Shown: one piece after another, positions 14,117-63,681 of the stretch
How the letters are laid out: each line of letters opens with the position of its first letter
Numbering within the stretch: position 1 is the stretch's first letter
NCBI RefSeq assembly: GCF_002973535.1
Contig: NZ_PVEP01000001.1
Coordinates: 1,109,011-1,173,010, forward strand
Direction: 5' to 3'
DNA from: Albidovulum denitrificans
Lineage (GTDB): Bacteria > Pseudomonadota > Alphaproteobacteria > Rhodobacterales > Rhodobacteraceae
DNA length: 64,000 bases
Notes under the pieces: model-generated
The model's input: only the letters and a program-made list of their open reading frames with translations
Told to the model about the DNA's origin: nothing
Database searches by the model: none
Program-made: the position numbers and the translations under genes

Positions 14117-14218
14117 GCCCTGCCCGTCCCCCTCCCCCGTCGCCGGAAAGCTTTTCTTAACCTTTGCAAACGAAAGATGAGCGACAGGTACGAGTTAGTA
14201 AAGTGAATGGAGGATTCC

Positions 14219-15604
14219 GTGGGCGGGAAAATCCTTATTGCCGATGATGTTGCGACGAACCGGATCGTGTTGAAGGTCAAGCTCGCATCGGCTTTCTACG
14301 AAACGATTCAGGCGTCCAGCGGGCGCGAGACGCTGGCACTGGCGCGCTCGACCCGGCCGAACCTGATTCTGCTGGATGTGGAGATGCCGGACATCAGCGG
14401 CATCGACGTCTGCCGTCGGTTGAAGGCCGATCCGGCAACCTGCGACATCCCCGTGGTGATGGTCACCGCCTTTCGCGACATGGATCGCAAGATGGCAGCG
14501 CTTGAGGCCGGGGCGGACGAAGTGTTCTGGAAACCGCTGGATGAGGTGGTGCTGCTGGCGCGGCTGCGCAGTATCCTCAGGGCGCGCGAAACGGCCGAGG
14601 AGCTGTGGCTGCGGCAGGGAACCGCGCGGGAGCTTGGCCTCGCCGAACCCGCCGCGGCCTTCACCCGGCAATCGAAGGTGGCGCTGGTGTCGAACGACCG
14701 CGCCCGGCGCACGTCCTGCCTGGCAGAGCTTGGCGCCTATCTCTCCGATAACCTCGTCGCGATTGAGCCGGAAGGCGCGCTGTCCGACGCCGCGCCCGAG
14801 GGCGCACCCGATGTCTTCCTGATCGGCTCCGATCTGGCGGCCTCTGGCGCCGGGCTGCGGCTGATCTCCGAACTCCGCTCCCGCGCCGCGACACGGCATT
14901 CGGCAATCTGCGTGATGCTGCCTGCGGGCGCGCGCGACCTTGCCGCGATGGCCCTCGACCTTGGCGCCAGCGACCTGATCGAGGCCGGCGCCGACGCGTC
15001 CGAAGTCGCGCTGCGCCTGCGCATCCAGTGCAGCCGCAAATATCAGGCCGACCGGCTGCGCGACAGCCTGGAAAGCCGCCTGCGCCTTGCGATGGTCGAT
15101 CCCCTGACCGGACTGCACAACCGCCGCTATGCAATGGCGCATCTGGGCCGCATCGCCGAACGCGCGACGCTATCGGGGCAAAGCTTCGCGGTGATGATCC
15201 TCGACCTTGACCGGTTCAAGTCGATCAACGACACCCACGGCCACGCGGCGGGCGACGCGGTGCTGATCGAGGTCGCCGCGCGTCTGGGGGAGGTTCTGCG
15301 CCCCTCTGACCTTCTGGCCCGGATCGGGGGGGAGGAATTCCTTGTCGTCCTGCCCGAAGCCGACCTTGCCCGCGCCAGCACCGTGGCCGAACGGCTGCGC
15401 CGCATCATCGGCGAAACCCCGGTTCCGCTGCCCCATGACGGTCAGGCGATCCCCGTCACCTCCTCCATCGGGCTGGCCATCGGCAATGCGCCCACAACCG
15501 CGGGCCTTGGCGTCGATGAACTTATGCACAGCGCCGACATGGCGTTGCTTTACGCCAAGCAGGACGGGCGCAATCAGGTGATCGTCGGTCAGCACGCGGC
15601 CTGA
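14219..15604 (+). CDS. pleD: PleD-type response regulator diguanylate cyclase
   Basis: A 461-residue protein with the PleD layout: a receiver domain with phospho-acceptor D53 in LILLDVEMP and the acidic pair at residues 9-10, a second receiver-like adaptor (about 155-280) whose acidic pocket is degenerate (VALVSND and VFLIGSD), and a GGDEF domain. The cyclase signature is GGEEF near residue 370 with an RPSD inhibition site five residues before it. It should make cyclic di-GMP when phosphorylated and dimerised. I place the start at GTG 14219 because GGAGG precedes it by 5 nt and the protein then opens GGKILIADD like other PleD proteins; the in-frame ATG at 14207 has no ribosome site. Confidence 0.92.
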   Translation: MGGKILIADDVATNRIVLKVKLASAFYETIQASSGRETLALARSTRPNLILLDVEMPDISGIDVCRRLKADPATCDIPVVMVTAFRDMDRKMAALEAGADEVFWKPLDEVVLLARLRSILRARETAEELWLRQGTARELGLAEPAAAFTRQSKVALVSNDRARRTSCLAELGAYLSDNLVAIEPEGALSDAAPEGAPDVFLIGSDLAASGAGLRLISELRSRAATRHSAICVMLPAGARDLAAMALDLGASDLIEAGADASEVALRLRIQCSRKYQADRLRDSLESRLRLAMVDPLTGLHNRRYAMAHLGRIAERATLSGQSFAVMILDLDRFKSINDTHGHAAGDAVLIEVAARLGEVLRPSDLLARIGGEEFLVVLPEADLARASTVAERLRRIIGETPVPLPHDGQAIPVTSSIGLAIGNAPTTAGLGVDELMHSADMALLYAKQDGRNQVIVGQHAA

Positions 15605-15632
15605 GGGATTGGCGCGCCGGCAAAACTCGCTT

Positions 15633-15725
15633 AAAGCGTTTCGGGTTTGCGTTGAGAAAGCAAGTATCAGAATTTGAACGAAATAAGATCGAATTCTGAT
15701 TCAGTGTAAGCCCGAAATGCTATAG
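15633..15725. repeat. Dispersed intergenic palindromic element, copy 1
   Basis: About 93 bp between pleD and a small lipoprotein gene. The outer ends are inverted repeats (GCGTTTCGGGTTTGC on the left, complementary to GCTTACACTGA...-type sequence ending CCCGAAATGC on the right) and the middle carries a second inverted repeat around AGAATTTGAAC / GATCGAATTCT. Read on the minus strand it matches copy 2 (50181-50274) with about seven mismatches, and most of copy 3 (63451-63514). Confidence 0.9.
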
Positions 15726-15758: not shown

Positions 15759-15896
15759 ATGCGCCTCATCATCATCCTCATGGGCCTTGCCGCCGCCACG
15801 CTTTCCGGCTGCGGGCCGCTTCTGGTCGGCGCAGGCGGCGCGGTGATCGCCGACAAGGCGGTCGAGGACCAGCAGGGCGGCGACGGCCTGTTCTAG
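15759..15896 (+). CDS. Small lipoprotein, 45 residues
   Basis: A short open frame with a clean lipoprotein signal: positively charged start MRLIII, hydrophobic core, and a lipobox LSGC with the modifiable cysteine at residue 18, leaving a mature peptide of only 28 residues (CGPLLVGAGGAVIADK and a short acidic tail). GGGAG lies about 8 nt ahead of the ATG. Tiny lipoproteins of this shape are frequent in Rhodobacterales but have no assigned role. It begins 33 nt after the end of the palindromic repeat, so its promoter may lie in or next to that repeat. Confidence 0.7.
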   Translation: MRLIIILMGLAAATLSGCGPLLVGAGGAVIADKAVEDQQGGDGLF

Positions 15897-49163: not shown

Positions 49164-50177
49164 ATGACGGCACTTACCGAATTCCAGAGACTGGAATGTA
49201 CCGGCCTCTGGCGCGAGGCGCCCGAGGCGCAGAAGCGCGAGGTCATCGTGTCCTTCGGGGATGCGACCCTTGTGCTGTCCGAGGCGCGCAGCCAACGCGC
49301 GCTGACCCATTGGTCGCTGCCCGCGATCCTTCGCCTGAACCCCGGCGAGGTGCCTGCGCGCTATGCCCCCGCCGCCGATGCCGACGAAGAGTTGGAGATC
49401 GAGGACGCGACGATGGTCGCGGCCATCGACAAGGTCCACACCCTCATTTCCGCCCGCAAGCCGCATCCGGGTCGGTTGCGCGGCTGGCTGATGTGGTCGG
49501 CTCTGGCGGCGGTTCTGGCGGTCGGGGTCCTCTGGCTGCCACGCGCCATCATCGACCACACGGCCGAGGCCCTGCCCTTCGCGACGCGGCAAGCCCTCGG
49601 CCGCCTCGCGCTTGAGGATCTGGAGCGGCTGACCGGCGCGCCCTGCGGCAATGTCGAAGGCACCGCCGCGCTGACGCGCCTGCGCGACCGGATGACTGGC
49701 ACCGGGGGCGAAACCTATGTCCTGCCCGCGCCGCTGAAACGGCCCCGGATGCTGCCGGGCGGGGTCCTTGTCCTGCCGAATGCGCTGATCGACGGGCAGG
49801 ACCGGCCCGAGGTGGCGGCGGCCGCGATCCTCGCCGCGCAACTGGCGGCAGAGGACACAGGCCCCACCCGCGCCGTTCTGCGCCATGCGGGGTTGCGCGC
49901 GACGATCGGCCTTATCACCACCGGGTCGCTGTCGGCGGACGCGGTGAAGGGCTATGGCGATGTGATCCTTGCAGGCAGTGACTGGCTTCCCCGGCCCGAG
50001 AGGTTGCTTCAGCGTTTCGCCGAGGCCGGGATTTCCAGCACCCCCTTCGCCTATGCCATCGACCCGACGGGGGAAACGACGCTGCCCCTGATCGAGGCCG
50101 ATCCCCATGCGAAAGACGCAAGGCCGGTCATGACCGACACCGACTGGGTCGCGCTTCAGGGGATCTGCGACGGGTAA
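49164..50177 (+). CDS. Membrane-anchored protein with degenerate M48-like C-terminal domain
   Basis: A 337-residue protein with one transmembrane helix (about residues 107-126, GWLMWSALAAVLAVGVLWLP), a small N-terminal cytoplasmic part and a C-terminal periplasmic-type domain. That domain (GGVLVLPNALIDGQDRPEVAAAAILAAQLA) recalls the M48 peptidase core, yet the HExxH zinc motif expected after PEVAAAIL is replaced by AAQLA. It may be a non-catalytic homologue or the resemblance may be superficial. It is preceded by a purine-rich site and followed by a copy of the palindromic repeat. Confidence 0.65.
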   Translation: MTALTEFQRLECTGLWREAPEAQKREVIVSFGDATLVLSEARSQRALTHWSLPAILRLNPGEVPARYAPAADADEELEIEDATMVAAIDKVHTLISARKPHPGRLRGWLMWSALAAVLAVGVLWLPRAIIDHTAEALPFATRQALGRLALEDLERLTGAPCGNVEGTAALTRLRDRMTGTGGETYVLPAPLKRPRMLPGGVLVLPNALIDGQDRPEVAAAAILAAQLAAEDTGPTRAVLRHAGLRATIGLITTGSLSADAVKGYGDVILAGSDWLPRPERLLQRFAEAGISSTPFAYAIDPTGETTLPLIEADPHAKDARPVMTDTDWVALQGICDG

Positions 50178-50180
50178 CGC

Positions 50181-50274
50181 CTATGGCATTTCGGGTTTAC
50201 ACTGACTCAGAATTCGAACTTATTTCGTTCGAATTCCGATACTTACTTTCTCAACGCAAACCCGAAACGCTTTA
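50181..50274. repeat. Dispersed intergenic palindromic element, copy 2
   Basis: Full-length copy of the element first seen at 15633, in the opposite orientation. It opens CTATGGCATTTCGGGTTTAC and closes AACCCGAAACGCTTTA, with the inner palindrome TCAGAATTCGAAC / GTTCGAATTC. It fills the interval between two convergent genes, and its final TTA is the stop codon of the minus-strand SPOR gene. Confidence 0.9.
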
Positions 50275-51213
50275 GCCGCGCGTCGGATAGGCGTCCGGGT
50301 AGCCGTTCCGCCGGAGCAGCGTCACGGCATCCCTCACCTCGGCCGCGCTGGCGAAGGGGCCTGCAAGGATGACCTTCAGCCGCCCGCCGACACCGACCGA
50401 AACCGGCAGCCCCAGCCCGTTCAACGTCGCGATGGCGCGTTCGGCATTGGCCGGATCGCCGAAGGCCCCGATCTGGACAAAGGCCCCGCCCGTGGCCCCG
50501 GCCGGTTCCGTCGCCATCGCGGCCCGGCCCGCCTCGGTCAGGTTACCCTTGGCATAGGTCACGCGGTAGCCGCCCTGATTGGCGGTCTCGGCGCGGCGGA
50601 TCTCGGCCGCCGTCGGGGCGCGGTCCGTCACCGTCAGGCCCGGCACGCCAAGGCCGTTGAGGTAAGGCACCGCCGCACCCGTCGCGCTGTCGTCACATTG
50701 CGTCACCCGGCGCCCGTCGCTGAGCAAGTAGCGCTGTGCCGTGTCGATCCGGTCGGCGCAGTAGGTGTTCGCCTTGGCGACGGTACTCTGCCGGACAAGG
50801 GCGGTGGTTGTGCTGTCGGGCGCGCGCTTGGCCTTGCGGGCGGTCTTGCGTACGGGCTTTGCCCGCGCGGGCTTCACCGTGGCAGGCGCGGCCGCAGGCG
50901 CCGGGGCGGCCTCGACCGGCGCGGCAACCGGGTCCGGCGCGGGGTCGGCGGCGACCGGCGCAGCGGCGGCTGCCGTCACGCTCGGCTCATAGCCACAGAC
51001 CGGGGTGCGGTCGCGCCCCAGACGCGGGACCCAGCTTGTCTGCCCGCCAAGACCCGCGCGCAGAAAGACGCACCCGGCGCTGTCGACATACTGGTTGCCA
51101 CCGAAATCTGCCGGGGGCAGTTCCCTTGGCCCCTGGTTCCCCTGCGCCACGACGACACCGCCGGCCAGAACCGCCATCACTGCCGCCACCGCGACCCCTG
51201 CAAATACACGCAT
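50272..51213 (-). CDS. Secreted SPOR-domain protein
   Basis: A 313-residue protein with an N-terminal signal peptide or anchor (RVFAGVAVAAVMAVLAGGVVVAQ), a cysteine-containing region (GCVFLRAGLGGQTSWVPRLGRDRTPVCGYEP), a long alanine-proline linker with a basic stretch, and a C-terminal SPOR domain (FVQIGAFGDPANAERAIATL to GPFASAAEVRDAVTLLRRNGY) that binds denuded peptidoglycan at the division site. I start at 51213 rather than the adjacent ATG at 51216 because of better spacing to AGGGG. The stop codon is contributed by the repeat copy 2. Confidence 0.85.
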   Translation of the reverse strand: MRVFAGVAVAAVMAVLAGGVVVAQGNQGPRELPPADFGGNQYVDSAGCVFLRAGLGGQTSWVPRLGRDRTPVCGYEPSVTAAAAAPVAADPAPDPVAAPVEAAPAPAAAPATVKPARAKPVRKTARKAKRAPDSTTTALVRQSTVAKANTYCADRIDTAQRYLLSDGRRVTQCDDSATGAAVPYLNGLGVPGLTVTDRAPTAAEIRRAETANQGGYRVTYAKGNLTEAGRAAMATEPAGATGGAFVQIGAFGDPANAERAIATLNGLGLPVSVGVGGRLKVILAGPFASAAEVRDAVTLLRRNGYPDAYPTRG

Positions 51214-51278
51214 CATCCGCCCCTGAATCTGTCGCGGAAGGATGCCAAACCGGGCGGCCCGCGTAAAGGGGATACGGC

Positions 51279-60537: not shown

Positions 60538-62061
60538 ATGCAACTCGGCCGAACGCAGAATAACGGCGACGACGGATCGACCGACGCGGGGAACATGAAC
60601 CTTCTGGGTCATGACGTCCGCGCCGCCGTCTCCGACATCATCGGCGGGCTGCGCCTGATCGATCAGGCGGGGATGGACCCGGCCACGCGGCTGCAACTGG
60701 AACGGGTCCGCACGTCAAGCGAAACGCTCGCCCGCCTTCTGGAAGAGGCGATGATCATTCTCTTCGGGGAAGACGCGACCTTTCCAAGGACAACGTCGAA
60801 TGTCCAGCTTGACCGCTTCTTTTACGACATCGAGATGCGCTGGTCCGGGCGGGCCACGGCCAAGGGGCTGACGCTGGCCTGTCACCGGGACGCGAACCTG
60901 CCGCAGGTCCTGACTGTCGACCGGATATCGCTGGACCGGATCCTGTCGAACATCCTGTCGAACGCGATCAAGTATACCGATCAAGGTACGGTCCGCATGG
61001 AGGTGGGCCTTGGCGCGACCGGCGGCCTTCGCATCGACGTCACCGATCAGGGACCGGGCTTTTCCACCGGCGCGCTTGACCGGCTGTTTCAGTATCAGGG
61101 CCGCCCCGAAGGCACCGGCAAACCCGGCCAGGGCCTTGGCATGCATATCTCCAAATACCTCTCCGGCTCTCTCGGCGGCACCATCGGGGTGGAGAATCTT
61201 GACGGCGGCGGGGCGCGGGTGACGCTGGAACTGCCGCCCTCGGTCTTCTCAAGCGCGGCGCGCGACGACCATCCCGACCTGCCGGACCTGAGCCGGACCA
61301 AGGTCCTTCTGGCCGAGGATAGTGAGACCAACCAGCTTGTGCTGGGCCAGATGCTGCGCCAGCTTGGCGCCGAATTCGAAACCGCGTCGGACGGGGTGCA
61401 GGCGCTCAACTGGCTTGAGCGTGAGGAATTCGACCTGGCCCTGATCGACATCGAGATGCCGCGCCTTGGCGGCATCGACGTGATCCGCACCGTGCGCGCC
61501 GATAACCGCGTCTATTCCCGGATGCCCATCGTCGCCATCACCGCCTATGTCCTCAGGGCGAACCGCGACGCGATCTATGCCGCGGGCGCCGATGCGATCC
61601 TCGCCAAGCCCATCGTCAGCCTTGAAACCTTCGGCCAGGCGATCGCGAATGTCCTGCGCCGCAGCGCGCTGACCGACGCAGAGGCCGCCATTCAGGTCGA
61701 GGAAGGGCTGGCGGAGTTCAACCGCGACTGCTTCGACCGGCTGATCGAGGTGGCGGGACCGGACGCCTCGCGCGAGTTGCTGATCCGGCTTGCCGCCGAC
61801 CTGCGCAATTGCGAACGCAATCTGGTCGCGGGCCTTGCCGAACACGACATGACCAAGATCCGCGCCGAAACCCATGTCCTGATCGCGCTGGCGGGCGCCG
61901 TGGGGGCCGAAAGGCTGTCGGGTCTGGCGCAGAACCTGAACGCCATCGCGCATCGGCAAAGCGAGGGCGACATCGCCACGCTGGGCGACGAATGCCTGGG
62001 ACAACTTGACCGGCTGATCCACTTCATCACCAAGGAAAAAGCCAGCCGGGGGGAGGCCTGA
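60538..62061 (+). CDS. Soluble hybrid histidine kinase with receiver and HPt domains
   Basis: A 507-residue protein without membrane helix or input domain. The dimerisation helix carries H25 in LLGHDVRAAVSDI, the ATPase domain has an N box NILSNAIKYTD, DQGPGFS and GQGLGMHISKYL, a receiver domain follows with D304 in LIDIEMP, and the C terminus is an HPt domain with candidate H446 in AETHVLIALAGAVGAERL. It can support the full chain His to Asp to His. The start is the ATG at 60538, not the TTG before it. The last base of its stop is the first of the next gene's ATG, so the downstream sigma-54 activator is the probable target. Confidence 0.88.
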   Translation: MQLGRTQNNGDDGSTDAGNMNLLGHDVRAAVSDIIGGLRLIDQAGMDPATRLQLERVRTSSETLARLLEEAMIILFGEDATFPRTTSNVQLDRFFYDIEMRWSGRATAKGLTLACHRDANLPQVLTVDRISLDRILSNILSNAIKYTDQGTVRMEVGLGATGGLRIDVTDQGPGFSTGALDRLFQYQGRPEGTGKPGQGLGMHISKYLSGSLGGTIGVENLDGGGARVTLELPPSVFSSAARDDHPDLPDLSRTKVLLAEDSETNQLVLGQMLRQLGAEFETASDGVQALNWLEREEFDLALIDIEMPRLGGIDVIRTVRADNRVYSRMPIVAITAYVLRANRDAIYAAGADAILAKPIVSLETFGQAIANVLRRSALTDAEAAIQVEEGLAEFNRDCFDRLIEVAGPDASRELLIRLAADLRNCERNLVAGLAEHDMTKIRAETHVLIALAGAVGAERLSGLAQNLNAIAHRQSEGDIATLGDECLGQLDRLIHFITKEKASRGEA

Positions 62062-63449
62062 TGGCAAGCGCCCCGCTTCTTCTGGTGGAAGACACGCCCT
62101 CGCTTCAACTGGTCTATGAATCGGTCCTGAAGGCGGCGGGGTATGAGGTGACGACGGCCGGCACCGCCGCCGCAGGGCTGGCGATGTTTCGCACGCAAAA
62201 GCCCGCGGTCGTGCTTTTGGACCTGATGCTGCCGGATCGCGACGGGCTTGATCTGTTGCAGGACATGCTGGCGGTCAAGCCCGACGCGCATGTGATCGTC
62301 ATCACCGCCAATGGCTCGATCAACAAGGCGGTGGCGGCGATGCGGGCGGGGGCGCATGAATTCCTCGTCAAGCCCATCGACGAACAGCGTTTTCTGAACG
62401 CGGTCCAGAACGCGGTCACCGACGCGCATACCGATACCGCCGACACGCCGGAGACGCGGCCGGAAACCCCTCCGCCGGGGGAGTTCATCGGCGCCTCGGT
62501 CGTGATGGGGCAGGTCTATGACAAGATCCGTTCGGTCGCGCGGTCGATGGCGACGGTCTTCATCACCGGTGAAAGCGGCACCGGGAAAGAGCTTTGCGCG
62601 CAGGCGGTCCATGATCTGTCAAACCGCCGCAACGGCCCCTTCGTGCCGCTGAACTGCGGCGCGATCCCGTCCGAGCTTCTGGAATCCGAGGTCTTCGGCC
62701 ATGTGAAAGGCTCCTTCACCGGCGCGATTTCGGACAAGCCGGGCGCCGCCGCCTCGGCCGATGGCGGAACGCTGTTTCTGGATGAGATTTGTGAGCTTGA
62801 CCTGAACCTTCAGACCAAGCTTTTGCGCTTCCTTCAGACCTCCACCATCCAGCCCGTCGGCGCGACGCGGCCCCGCAAGGTCAATGTGCGCATCGTCTGC
62901 GCCACCAACCGCGATCCGCTTCAGGCGGTCCGGCGCGGCCAGTTCCGCGAGGACCTTTATTATCGCCTTCACGTCGTCCCGATCCACATGCCGCCGCTGC
63001 GCGAACGGGGCGAGGATGTGAACGTCATCGCGACCGAGGCGCTGCTGCGCTTCGCCCGCGAAGAGGGCCGCGCCTTCACCACGCTGGGTGAGGATGTGCG
63101 GGCGCTGTTTCGCGACCTCGACTGGCCCGGCAACGTGCGCCAGCTTCTCAACGCGATCCGCCATGTGGTCGTGCTGAACGACGGGACCACGGTGACGCGC
63201 GCCATGCTGCCCGCCGAACTGCTTGAAACCCAGACTGCCGAAGCGGTGGCCCCCGCGCCCGGCAGCCCCGAACCGATGACGCTTGACGGCCTTGTCGGCC
63301 GCCCGCTGGCAGAGGTCGAACGGATGCTGATCGAGGCGACGATCGCGCTGCATGGCGGGTCGATCCCCAAGGCAGCGCGGGTTCTCGACGTCTCCCCCTC
63401 GACCCTGTACCGCAAGATCGAAAGCTGGCGCGGGGCAGGGAAGGCCTGA
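62061..63449 (+). CDS. Sigma-54-dependent response regulator (LuxO/NtrC type)
   Basis: A 462-residue activator. Receiver domain with D54 in VVLLDLMLPD, then an AAA+ domain with Walker A GESGTGKE near residue 170, the sigma-54 loop spelled GSFTGA instead of GAFTGA, Walker B TLFLDEICELD, and arginine fingers in RQGQFREDLYYRL-like RRGQFREDLYYRL, and a C-terminal Fis-type helix-turn-helix (GSIPKAARVLDVSPSTLYRKIESW). It is translationally coupled to the hybrid kinase gene (TGATG) and is its likely output. Targets are unknown. Confidence 0.92.
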   Translation: MASAPLLLVEDTPSLQLVYESVLKAAGYEVTTAGTAAAGLAMFRTQKPAVVLLDLMLPDRDGLDLLQDMLAVKPDAHVIVITANGSINKAVAAMRAGAHEFLVKPIDEQRFLNAVQNAVTDAHTDTADTPETRPETPPPGEFIGASVVMGQVYDKIRSVARSMATVFITGESGTGKELCAQAVHDLSNRRNGPFVPLNCGAIPSELLESEVFGHVKGSFTGAISDKPGAAASADGGTLFLDEICELDLNLQTKLLRFLQTSTIQPVGATRPRKVNVRIVCATNRDPLQAVRRGQFREDLYYRLHVVPIHMPPLRERGEDVNVIATEALLRFAREEGRAFTTLGEDVRALFRDLDWPGNVRQLLNAIRHVVVLNDGTTVTRAMLPAELLETQTAEAVAPAPGSPEPMTLDGLVGRPLAEVERMLIEATIALHGGSIPKAARVLDVSPSTLYRKIESWRGAGKA

Positions 63450-63450
63450 T

Positions 63451-63514
63451 CTATAGCATTTCGGGTTGACGCTGAATCAGAATTTGAACTTATTTCGTTC
63501 GAATTCTGATACTT
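63451..63514. repeat. Dispersed intergenic palindromic element, copy 3 (partial)
   Basis: CTATAGCATTTCGGGTTGAC through AATTCTGATACTT matches the left and central parts of copies 1 and 2, including the inner palindrome, but the right end is replaced by unrelated AT-rich sequence. It begins 2 nt after the stop codon of the sigma-54 regulator gene. Confidence 0.85.
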
Positions 63515-63681
63515 CGTTCACCCTGAAAAAAGTAAGCCCATCATGACCTGCAATAAGATCATTCTGGTAGCTGAAAGCACGTGCGGTAAGCATTTATCCA
63601 TCCGCAACAATGATGAATTTCATGTCATCGGAAAATGATATAAGAAATACGGACTTGTTCCGTTCTTTTAAATATATCTCT
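63515..63681. other. AT-rich intergenic interval next to an IS element
   Basis: About 165 nt of sequence much richer in A and T than the rest of the window. One 31-codon frame (63543-63638, MTCNKIILVAES...) has no clear ribosome site and I do not call it a gene. Nothing else recognisable is seen. It looks like sequence brought in or left behind at an insertion site. Confidence 0.5.

What the first reader, a model, noticed from the sequence alone, without database searches (positions are those of the whole stretch)
15633..15725. A 93-bp nested palindromic element dispersed in intergenic gaps (three copies in this window)
Copies at 15633-15725, 50181-50274 and 63451-63514 share outer inverted ends (CATTTCGGGTTT / AAACCCGAAACG) and an inner palindrome (TCAGAATTCGAAC / GTTCGAATTC). 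The first two differ at about seven positions over some 93 bp, in opposite orientation. All are intergenic and AT-richer than the chromosome. Such uniformity suggests recent spread by a transposase acting in trans, like REP or MITE elements, or a shared RNA role.
Basis: seen in the sequence. Interest (0 to 1): 0.7.

Follow-up and report, generated by a model that had tools for sequence, protein, structure and literature searches.

The report
Hairpin element that docks in stop codons
A 93-base hairpin-forming DNA element is present in about 107 copies in this bacterial genome, mostly between genes that face each other and in two thirds of cases with its own end serving as a gene's stop codon; it was likely spread by a transposase made elsewhere, and it matters because it shows where a mobile element can land in a compact genome with little predicted damage.

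Summary
The unit is 93 bp including a TA at each end (window 15632-15724 plus strand, 50182-50274 minus strand, a truncated copy at 63452-63527); the genome has at least 107 copies plus 3 partial ones. It is a MITE-type element, not REP/RAYT: one clean empty site shows a TA duplication, the target consensus is Y-TA-R, and no RAYT was found. Relatives with the same ends, mostly 103-106 bp, occur in 40 of 296 sampled family genomes (own included); one genome has four near-identical copies at unrelated YTAR sites.

The site is unusual. In 71 of 107 copies the element's left end is the neighbouring gene's stop codon, and joined flanks have TAA or TAG there in all 71. An estimated 37% of YTAR stop codons of convergent genes are occupied, against 0.4-6% of other site classes. 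At single-stop sites orientation is 55 to 4 for the end that restores a stop. Best explanation: a trans-mobilised MITE filtered by selection into stop codons between convergent genes. No transposase with matching ends was found, so the mobiliser (IS427/IS711-like by target) is inferred. The hairpin covaries across species; its function is untested.

The parts
15632..15724 (+). Copy 1 of the 93-bp element, left end TAAAGC, right end GCTATA
50182..50274 (-). Copy 2 of the 93-bp element; its left end lies at 50274
   Evidence: empty orthologous site in G014
63452..63527 (-). Copy 3, truncated: right end and inner hairpin kept, left end replaced
   Evidence: model positions 17-93
50272..50274 (-). 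Stop codon TAA of the minus-strand gene 50272-51216, formed by the element's left end (TA of the target copy, A of the element)
50272..51216 (-). Gene ending in copy 2 (C-terminus looks like a SPOR domain; label recalled from sequence, not searched)
49164..50177 (+). Convergent partner gene of copy 2; its stop (50175-50177) lies 4 bp before the element
14207..15604 (+). Gene upstream of copy 1 (response regulator with GGDEF-type motif, by eye), stop 27 bp before the element
15759..15896 (+). Small lipoprotein-like ORF (45 aa, by eye) 34 bp after copy 1; missed by my gene caller, so copy 1 is probably in a tandem rather than a convergent gap
   Evidence: sequence
62061..63449 (+). Gene ending 2 bp before copy 3 (NtrC-type regulator, by eye)

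Best explanation
The repeat is a 93-bp non-autonomous transposable element (MITE) that was likely copied around the genome by a DDE transposase acting in trans, inserts at Y-TA-R with duplication of the TA, and has accumulated at stop codons between convergent genes, likely because those insertions do the least harm. Shown: TA at the left end in 91 and at the right end in 89 of 107 copies; YTAR flanks; one clean empty orthologous site; a gene's stop codon formed by the element's left end in 71 of 107 copies; joined flanks that put an in-frame TAA or TAG at the junction in all 71; strong excess at convergent stop codons; orientation bias towards the end that restores a stop. Inferred: the transposase is of the IS427/IS711 (IS5-family) kind, because IS711 has the same target rule; the orientation bias is selection against C-terminal extension (the wrong end would add about seven residues such as YSISGLH). 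Untested: whether the hairpin terminates transcription, protects the 3' ends of mRNAs or stalls ribosomes.
For: Copy number and uniform length (98 of 107 are exactly 93 bp). Target: base before the left TA is C or T in 97 of 107, after the right TA G or A in 105 of 107; both in 95 of 107. Empty site: G014 has TGATGCGTTA|GCC where the window has the element between two TAs; the minus-strand stop codon there is a TAA that uses exactly that TA. In G020 the same convergent gap holds a diverged element in the opposite orientation at the other gene's stop codon, an independent insertion. Four near-identical 115-bp relatives in G183 at four unrelated sites (200-bp flank identity 21-32%), all YTAR. 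Patchy presence: 10 of 22 congeneric genomes, 40 of 296 in the family, own included. Occupancy, YTAR copies only: convergent stops 54 occupied vs about 94 free (37%), tandem stops 12 vs 250, other convergent YTAR 8 vs 135, tandem intergenic 19 vs 842, divergent 2 vs 478; Fisher with the raw free counts p = 5.7e-5 (stop vs non-stop in convergent gaps) and 1.7e-7 (convergent vs tandem stops). Orientation 55 vs 4, binomial p = 1.7e-12. Where the opposite gene's stop falls on the right end, that end is stop-forming in 9 of 20, against 5 of 87 elsewhere, p = 5.5e-5. IS711 is reported to duplicate TA in YTAR (PMC2266754, passages).
Against: No transposase with matching ends was found: PF13358 is absent from 9 of 10 genomes with copies, this one included; the 30 PF01609 loci that one search returned (not all its matches; three of the four in this genome) and the one PF13358 locus show no exact end and no inverted pair with up to two mismatches, only isolated single matches at 7 loci; no longer element with its ends in G183. 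G020 has many copies but neither family. Only one clean empty site was examined. Free-site numbers rest on small raw counts (9 and 13) scaled 10.4-fold from stretches that I chose free of known copies, leave out 5 sites at stretch edges and 56 coding ones, and use a home-made gene caller that misses small genes (copy 1). In other element-free convergent gaps the stop/non-stop YTAR split was 8 to 4; pooling both samples (17 to 17) still gives an odds ratio of 6.8, p = 1.7e-4. 12 of 107 copies are not flanked by YTAR today. Selection alone does not obviously explain why non-stop YTAR sites in convergent gaps are less used. The inner hairpin covaries although it is not part of the inverted ends, which a pure parasite would not obviously need.
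Confidence: 0.77

Rival explanations
1. The element is a domesticated 3'-end module: it supplies a stop codon plus a two-way hairpin that insulates converging transcription, protects mRNA 3' ends, or (as reported for E. coli REPs within 15 nt of a stop codon) stalls ribosomes and tunes the upstream gene, and copies at convergent stops are kept because they are useful.
For: Excess at convergent stops; hairpin with strong folding; cross-species covariation, 11 pairs with two-sided changes against 4.2 in shuffles, 0 of 500 reaching it; orientation 16 to 5 towards the upstream gene in non-stop tandem gaps. The REP statement is from the introduction of PMC5082802 (passage).
Against: 12 of 22 congeneric genomes have no match at E 0.001, so it is dispensable; no intrinsic-terminator-like site around copies 1 and 2; in other genera the other end, not the same hairpin face, sits at the stop. 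How often copies are shared between species was not tested beyond one site and one shared pair.
Confidence: 0.17
2. REP/REPIN-type element moved by a RAYT (Y1) transposase.
For: Palindromic, intergenic, high copy.
Against: PF01797 finds nothing in this genome while ringing in 5 of 14 control genomes; 93 bp with TA duplication and a palindromic YTAR target do not fit.
Confidence: 0.02
3. A variant of the best explanation: the transposition machinery itself seeks stop codons or converging transcription (targeted insertion), and selection is secondary.
For: Stop YTAR sites in convergent gaps are used with odds 7-10 times those of non-stop YTAR sites; recurrent independent insertion in one gap; IS711 used a single one of about fifteen YTAR sites in an assay gene, so YTAR is not the only determinant (PMC2266754, passage).
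Against: Small numbers of free sites; stop-forming right ends at opposite stops suggest that selection acts; IS711 inserts in both orientations and inside a gene when assayed (same passage).
Confidence: 0.15

Closest known systems
RUP of Streptococcus pneumoniae (with BOX and SPRITE)
   Same: 107 bp, 108 copies, TA termini, TA target, proposed trans-mobilisation by an IS; RUP, BOX and SPRITE are over-represented between convergent genes and BOX encodes the stop codon at the 3' end of 36 genes (PMC2229807 and PMC3049150, passages)
   Different: Unrelated host; RUP has a proposed partner IS630-Spn1 with similar ends, none was found here; exact regeneration of the stop codon by TA + A and the measured occupancy are not in the passages I read
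Bru-RS1/Bru-RS2 of Brucella
   Same: Palindromic, 103-105 bp, alphaproteobacterial, associated with IS711 whose target is YTAR with TA duplication (PMC2266754 and PMC2267715, passages); the relatives here are mostly 103-106 bp
CIR elements of Caulobacter and Brucella
   Same: About 110 bp, TA termini, conserved GANTC site (PMC2229807, passages); GANTC is kept here in 82 of 98 copies
   Different: CIRs are described as two arms with a linker; this is one long hairpin with a one-sided bulge; sequences not compared
ERIC and Correia/NEMIS
   Same: Small palindromic TA-ended MITEs whose transcripts can alter mRNA stability (PMC2229807, passages)
   Different: No sequence comparison made; hosts differ
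YPAL of Yersinia
   Same: Miniature insertions; that they lie just after stop codons is my recollection of the abstract of De Gregorio 2006, not seen here
   Different: 168 bp, no TA termini, variable duplications of 3-26 bp (PMC2229807, passage)
Br-REP1 of Bradyrhizobium
   Same: Alphaproteobacterial intergenic palindrome at about 200 sites, first found in overlapping 3'-UTRs of convergent genes (PMC5082802, passages)
   Different: 20-bp core palindrome, no TA ends or stop-codon link in the passages seen

Membership tests
MITE | Short, non-coding, multi-copy, with inverted ends | tested here: met
   93 bp, 107 copies, 13 paired positions at the ends
MITE | Target-site duplication with empty site | tested here: met
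   TA; one clean empty site, G014
MITE | Partner IS with matching ends | tested here: inconclusive
   None among 30 PF01609 loci, one PF13358 locus, nor in G183 by pattern; not an exhaustive search, and a partner is often unknown for repeats accepted as bacterial MITEs (PMC2229807, passage), so I keep the MITE reading
Element mobilised by an IS427/IS711-like (IS5 family) transposase | YTAR target, TA duplication | tested here: met
   Y before in 97/107, R after in 105/107, both in 95/107
Element mobilised by an IS427/IS711-like (IS5 family) transposase | Transposase gene of that kind with the same ends in the genome | tested here: not met
   G024 has an 851-bp IS with TA ends and YTAR flanks but other inverted repeats; none with the element's ends was found, so this is stated as inference only
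Element mobilised by IS630 (RUP-like) | IS630-type transposase present | tested here: not met
   PF13358: 0 hits in own genome, a hit in 1 of 10 genomes with copies; no pair of ends at that locus
REP/REPIN with RAYT | RAYT (Y1) transposase | tested here: not met
Described RNA family | Match to an Rfam model | tested here: not met
   No family at gathering score for the element; best sub-threshold match MIR810, E 0.074; only two tRNAs in 20 loci
Bru-RS / CIR | Sequence homology | not testable with these tools

The most novel reading that the evidence does not exclude
An alphaproteobacteria-wide family of palindromic elements that target and rebuild stop codons, and that in this lineage has been recruited as a portable gene-end module (stop codon plus two-way hairpin), now closing more than a third of the convergent genes whose stop codon offers a suitable site.
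Probability: 0.2. Interest if true: 0.72.

Novelty: new variant of a known kind. Interest (0 to 1): 0.52.

Why it matters
It gives a quantified case of a mobile element solving the 'where to land' problem in a gene-dense, GC-rich genome: YTAR is rare inside genes but built into many TAA/TAG stop codons, and the element's end rebuilds the stop. It may also link scattered alphaproteobacterial repeats (possibly Bru-RS and CIR) into one testable family, and it poses a clear open question: which transposase moves elements whose ends match no IS found here, and why the inner hairpin is kept by compensatory change.

Tried and rejected
Rejected: REP/RAYT, IS630 partner, IS5-family partner with the same ends, described RNA family, presence of the 93-bp form on plasmids at E 1e-5 (none), intrinsic terminator at copies 1 and 2 (none). 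A plasmid search with one 104-bp relative found mainly its inner part on 77 plasmid records, mostly roseobacters, with another a 45-bp piece on one plasmid. GANTC conservation at columns 67-71 is 84%, about the product of the single-column values, so it is no evidence of selection. Stop-codon preference was first thought to be explained by YTAR plus convergent gaps (8 to 4); the further sample argued against that. A first occupancy count (63 of about 157, 40%) mixed in 12 copies without YTAR flanks; the corrected one is 54 of about 148, 37%.

Papers: only passages or search listings were read; PMC10969869 has no passage on the six host and stop-codon terms asked. Searches in which a report of this element or of stop-codon docking could have shown; no listed title or abstract start described one for Rhodobacteraceae. 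That library lacks most subscription papers.

Full report
The observation. Aligning copies from the whole genome fixes the unit at 93 bp, TAAAGCGTTTCGGGTTT-...-AAACCCGAAATGCTATA, with a TA at each end. Copies 1 and 2 in the window are full length and in opposite orientation; copy 3 is truncated. A covariance model built from 35 copies (R1) found, in the window's own genome, 150 listed rows, which is the scoring cap and includes antisense rows; in the stretches fetched around them there are 107 full copies (98 of exactly 93 bp, 7 of 92, 1 of 94, one 76-bp deletion form) and 3 partial ones. Copies are 39.6% GC against 66.1% for the held stretches, with mean pairwise identity 88.7% among the 98.

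Anatomy. The strand folds as one long hairpin: an outer stem from both ends, a bulge of about 11 nt on the left arm only, and an inner stem with a 7-nt loop. Within this genome the copies are too alike to test pairing (0 two-sided changes). Across 25 copies from 10 genomes of the genus (20 of the 25 relatives' loci L061-L085, plus 5 own; L077, L078, L081, L084, L085 left out), 11 of 32 pairs show two-sided changes (shuffle mean 4.2, 0 of 500 reach it), and 92.3% of cells pair against at most 55.1% when the partner is slid. Shuffling does not remove relatedness, so this is support, not proof. No intrinsic-terminator-like site is found around copies 1 and 2.

Distribution. With R1, 10 of 22 genomes of the genus have matches; rows (antisense included) are 150 (capped) in the own genome, 109 in G013, 72 in G020, 25 in G019, then 13, 12, 9, 4, 3 and 3. 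With a cross-species model (R2), 40 of 296 genomes drawn from the family have matches (own included, stricter filters); outside the genus the listed ones are mostly about 104 bp, some 115-124 bp or about 50 bp, with similar ends but a different inner stem. A model of the 104-bp form (R3) matches 14 of 387 genomes drawn from the class, 8 of them outside the family; at least one of the weak ones (L324) does not show the ends and is probably chance.

It inserts at Y-TA-R. The base before the left TA is C 61, T 36, A 7, G 3; after the right TA G 80, A 25, T 1, C 1. Tetramers are CTAG 39, TTAG 31, CTAA 20, ATAG 7, TTAA 5, GTAG 3, CTAT 1, CTAC 1. At the orthologous place of copy 2, G014 has a short convergent gap with a single such TA, which belongs to the TAA stop codon of the minus-strand gene; in the window the element lies at that TA and its own end makes the TAA. 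Of the 22 loci compared, 16 give both genes (15 genomes, L088 and L108 being the same place). G014 and G010 show the empty junction (G010 next to a run of N); 12 genomes have gaps of at most 58 bp with no element seen; and G020 (L101) has a diverged element in the other orientation, starting in the stop codon of the other gene: a second, independent landing in the same gap. In G183 four 115-bp relatives, alike but for one base, sit at four unrelated YTAR sites, which shows recent movement.

Stop codons. With a home-made gene caller 71 of 107 copies lie between convergent genes, 34 in tandem gaps, 2 in divergent gaps, 0 inside genes; copy 1 shows that small genes can be missed. In 71 copies (not the same 71) the neighbouring gene's stop codon is the first three bases of the element (TAA 61, TGA 6, TAG 4). 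Joining the flanks at a single TA gives an in-frame TAG (52) or TAA (19) in all 71, so the stop was very likely there before insertion. At the right end, 20 copies coincide with the opposite gene's stop: in 9 the end now reads as a stop, in 11 the gene runs on to a tail such as YSISGLH. Sixteen copies have both. At sites with one stop the orientation is 55 to 4.

Denominators. In 395 kb of element-free stretches (chosen to avoid known copies) I counted free YTAR sites and scaled by 10.4. Counting only the 95 copies with YTAR flanks, occupied versus free: convergent stops 54 vs 94 (raw 9), tandem stops 12 vs 250 (24), other convergent 8 vs 135 (13), tandem intergenic 19 vs 842 (81), divergent 2 vs 478 (46). 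So about 37% of suitable convergent stops are taken. Both contrasts are significant with the raw free counts: p = 5.7e-5 for stop versus non-stop in convergent gaps, 1.7e-7 for convergent versus tandem stops. In the fetched loci, convergent gaps carry elements with odds ratio 16, p = 2e-27, though these loci were chosen for elements.

Other lineages. In G020, 12 of 31 distinct copies in the 30 loci examined have the stop codon at the left end (10 of them at that end only, against 2 at the right end only), and 15 of 29 with both neighbours called are convergent (two copies appear twice there and are counted once here). In other genera the ends differ: several subfamilies read TATAGC at the left and TAAAGC (reverse strand) at the right. 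There the gene stop lies at the right end (L173, L184, L277, L288, L290, L293, and L194 whose left end is CCG), while copies whose only stop-forming end is the left one have it there (L190, L191, L291); L181 and L190 have genes at both ends. Among 46 such loci I saw no single gene stop at a non-stop-forming end, but many have a neighbour not called and at L182, L279, L280 and L282 a gene call runs across the element. So what matters seems to be the end that rebuilds a stop, not the face of the hairpin, which argues for selection on the protein end.

Mechanism and its limits. TA duplication in YTAR is the rule reported for IS711 (PMC2266754, passages); that IS711 belongs to the IS427 group of the IS5 family is recalled. 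An IS of 851 bp with TA ends and YTAR flanks exists in G024 but with other inverted repeats. PF13358 is missing in 9 of 10 genomes with copies, PF01609 is absent from G020, the element's end occurs at none of 31 transposase loci examined (up to two mismatches, no inverted pair), and G183 has no longer element with its ends. The mobiliser is therefore inferred.

Known relatives. MITEs with TA termini, excess at convergent genes and even stop codons inside a repeat (BOX) are in print (PMC2229807, PMC3049150, passages). Rebuilding of the stop by the terminal TA + A, and occupancy of more than a third of suitable convergent stops, I did not find in the searches, which saw listings and some passages only. 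I therefore rate it a new variant of a known kind.

Noticed in passing
element columns 67-71, e.g. window 15698-15702: A GANTC (CcrM-type methylation) site is kept in 82 of 98 copies although its middle base varies T/G; not more than single-column conservation predicts.
   Followed up: partly
L329 1501-1565; L330; L331: The inner hairpin of one 104-bp relative (TGTCCCGAGAGCG...GGCAGGGTA) occurs on plasmids; of three records looked at, one has it exactly between two type IV secretion genes.
   Followed up: partly
L197 1501-1551, L294 1501-1551, own genome C1:250384-250432: Very short (about 50-bp) forms with only the outer stem occur in several genomes.
   Followed up: no
G183: 49 PF01609 matches in one genome, mostly two groups with the same score: a likely recent IS expansion.
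   Followed up: no
L252, L260, L265, L274 (G024): An 851-bp two-frame IS with TA ends and YTAR flanks, possibly IS427-like, copies 99.9-100% identical.
   Followed up: partly
own genome, 11 right-end copies: Eleven genes appear to end in an element-coded tail like YSISGLH.
   Followed up: partly
L285 1501-1624: One 104-bp relative has an internal tandem expansion around GAGACAGC.
   Followed up: no
L073 (G001) and L081 (G019): Two species share a copy with the same flanks, an inherited rather than new insertion.
   Followed up: no
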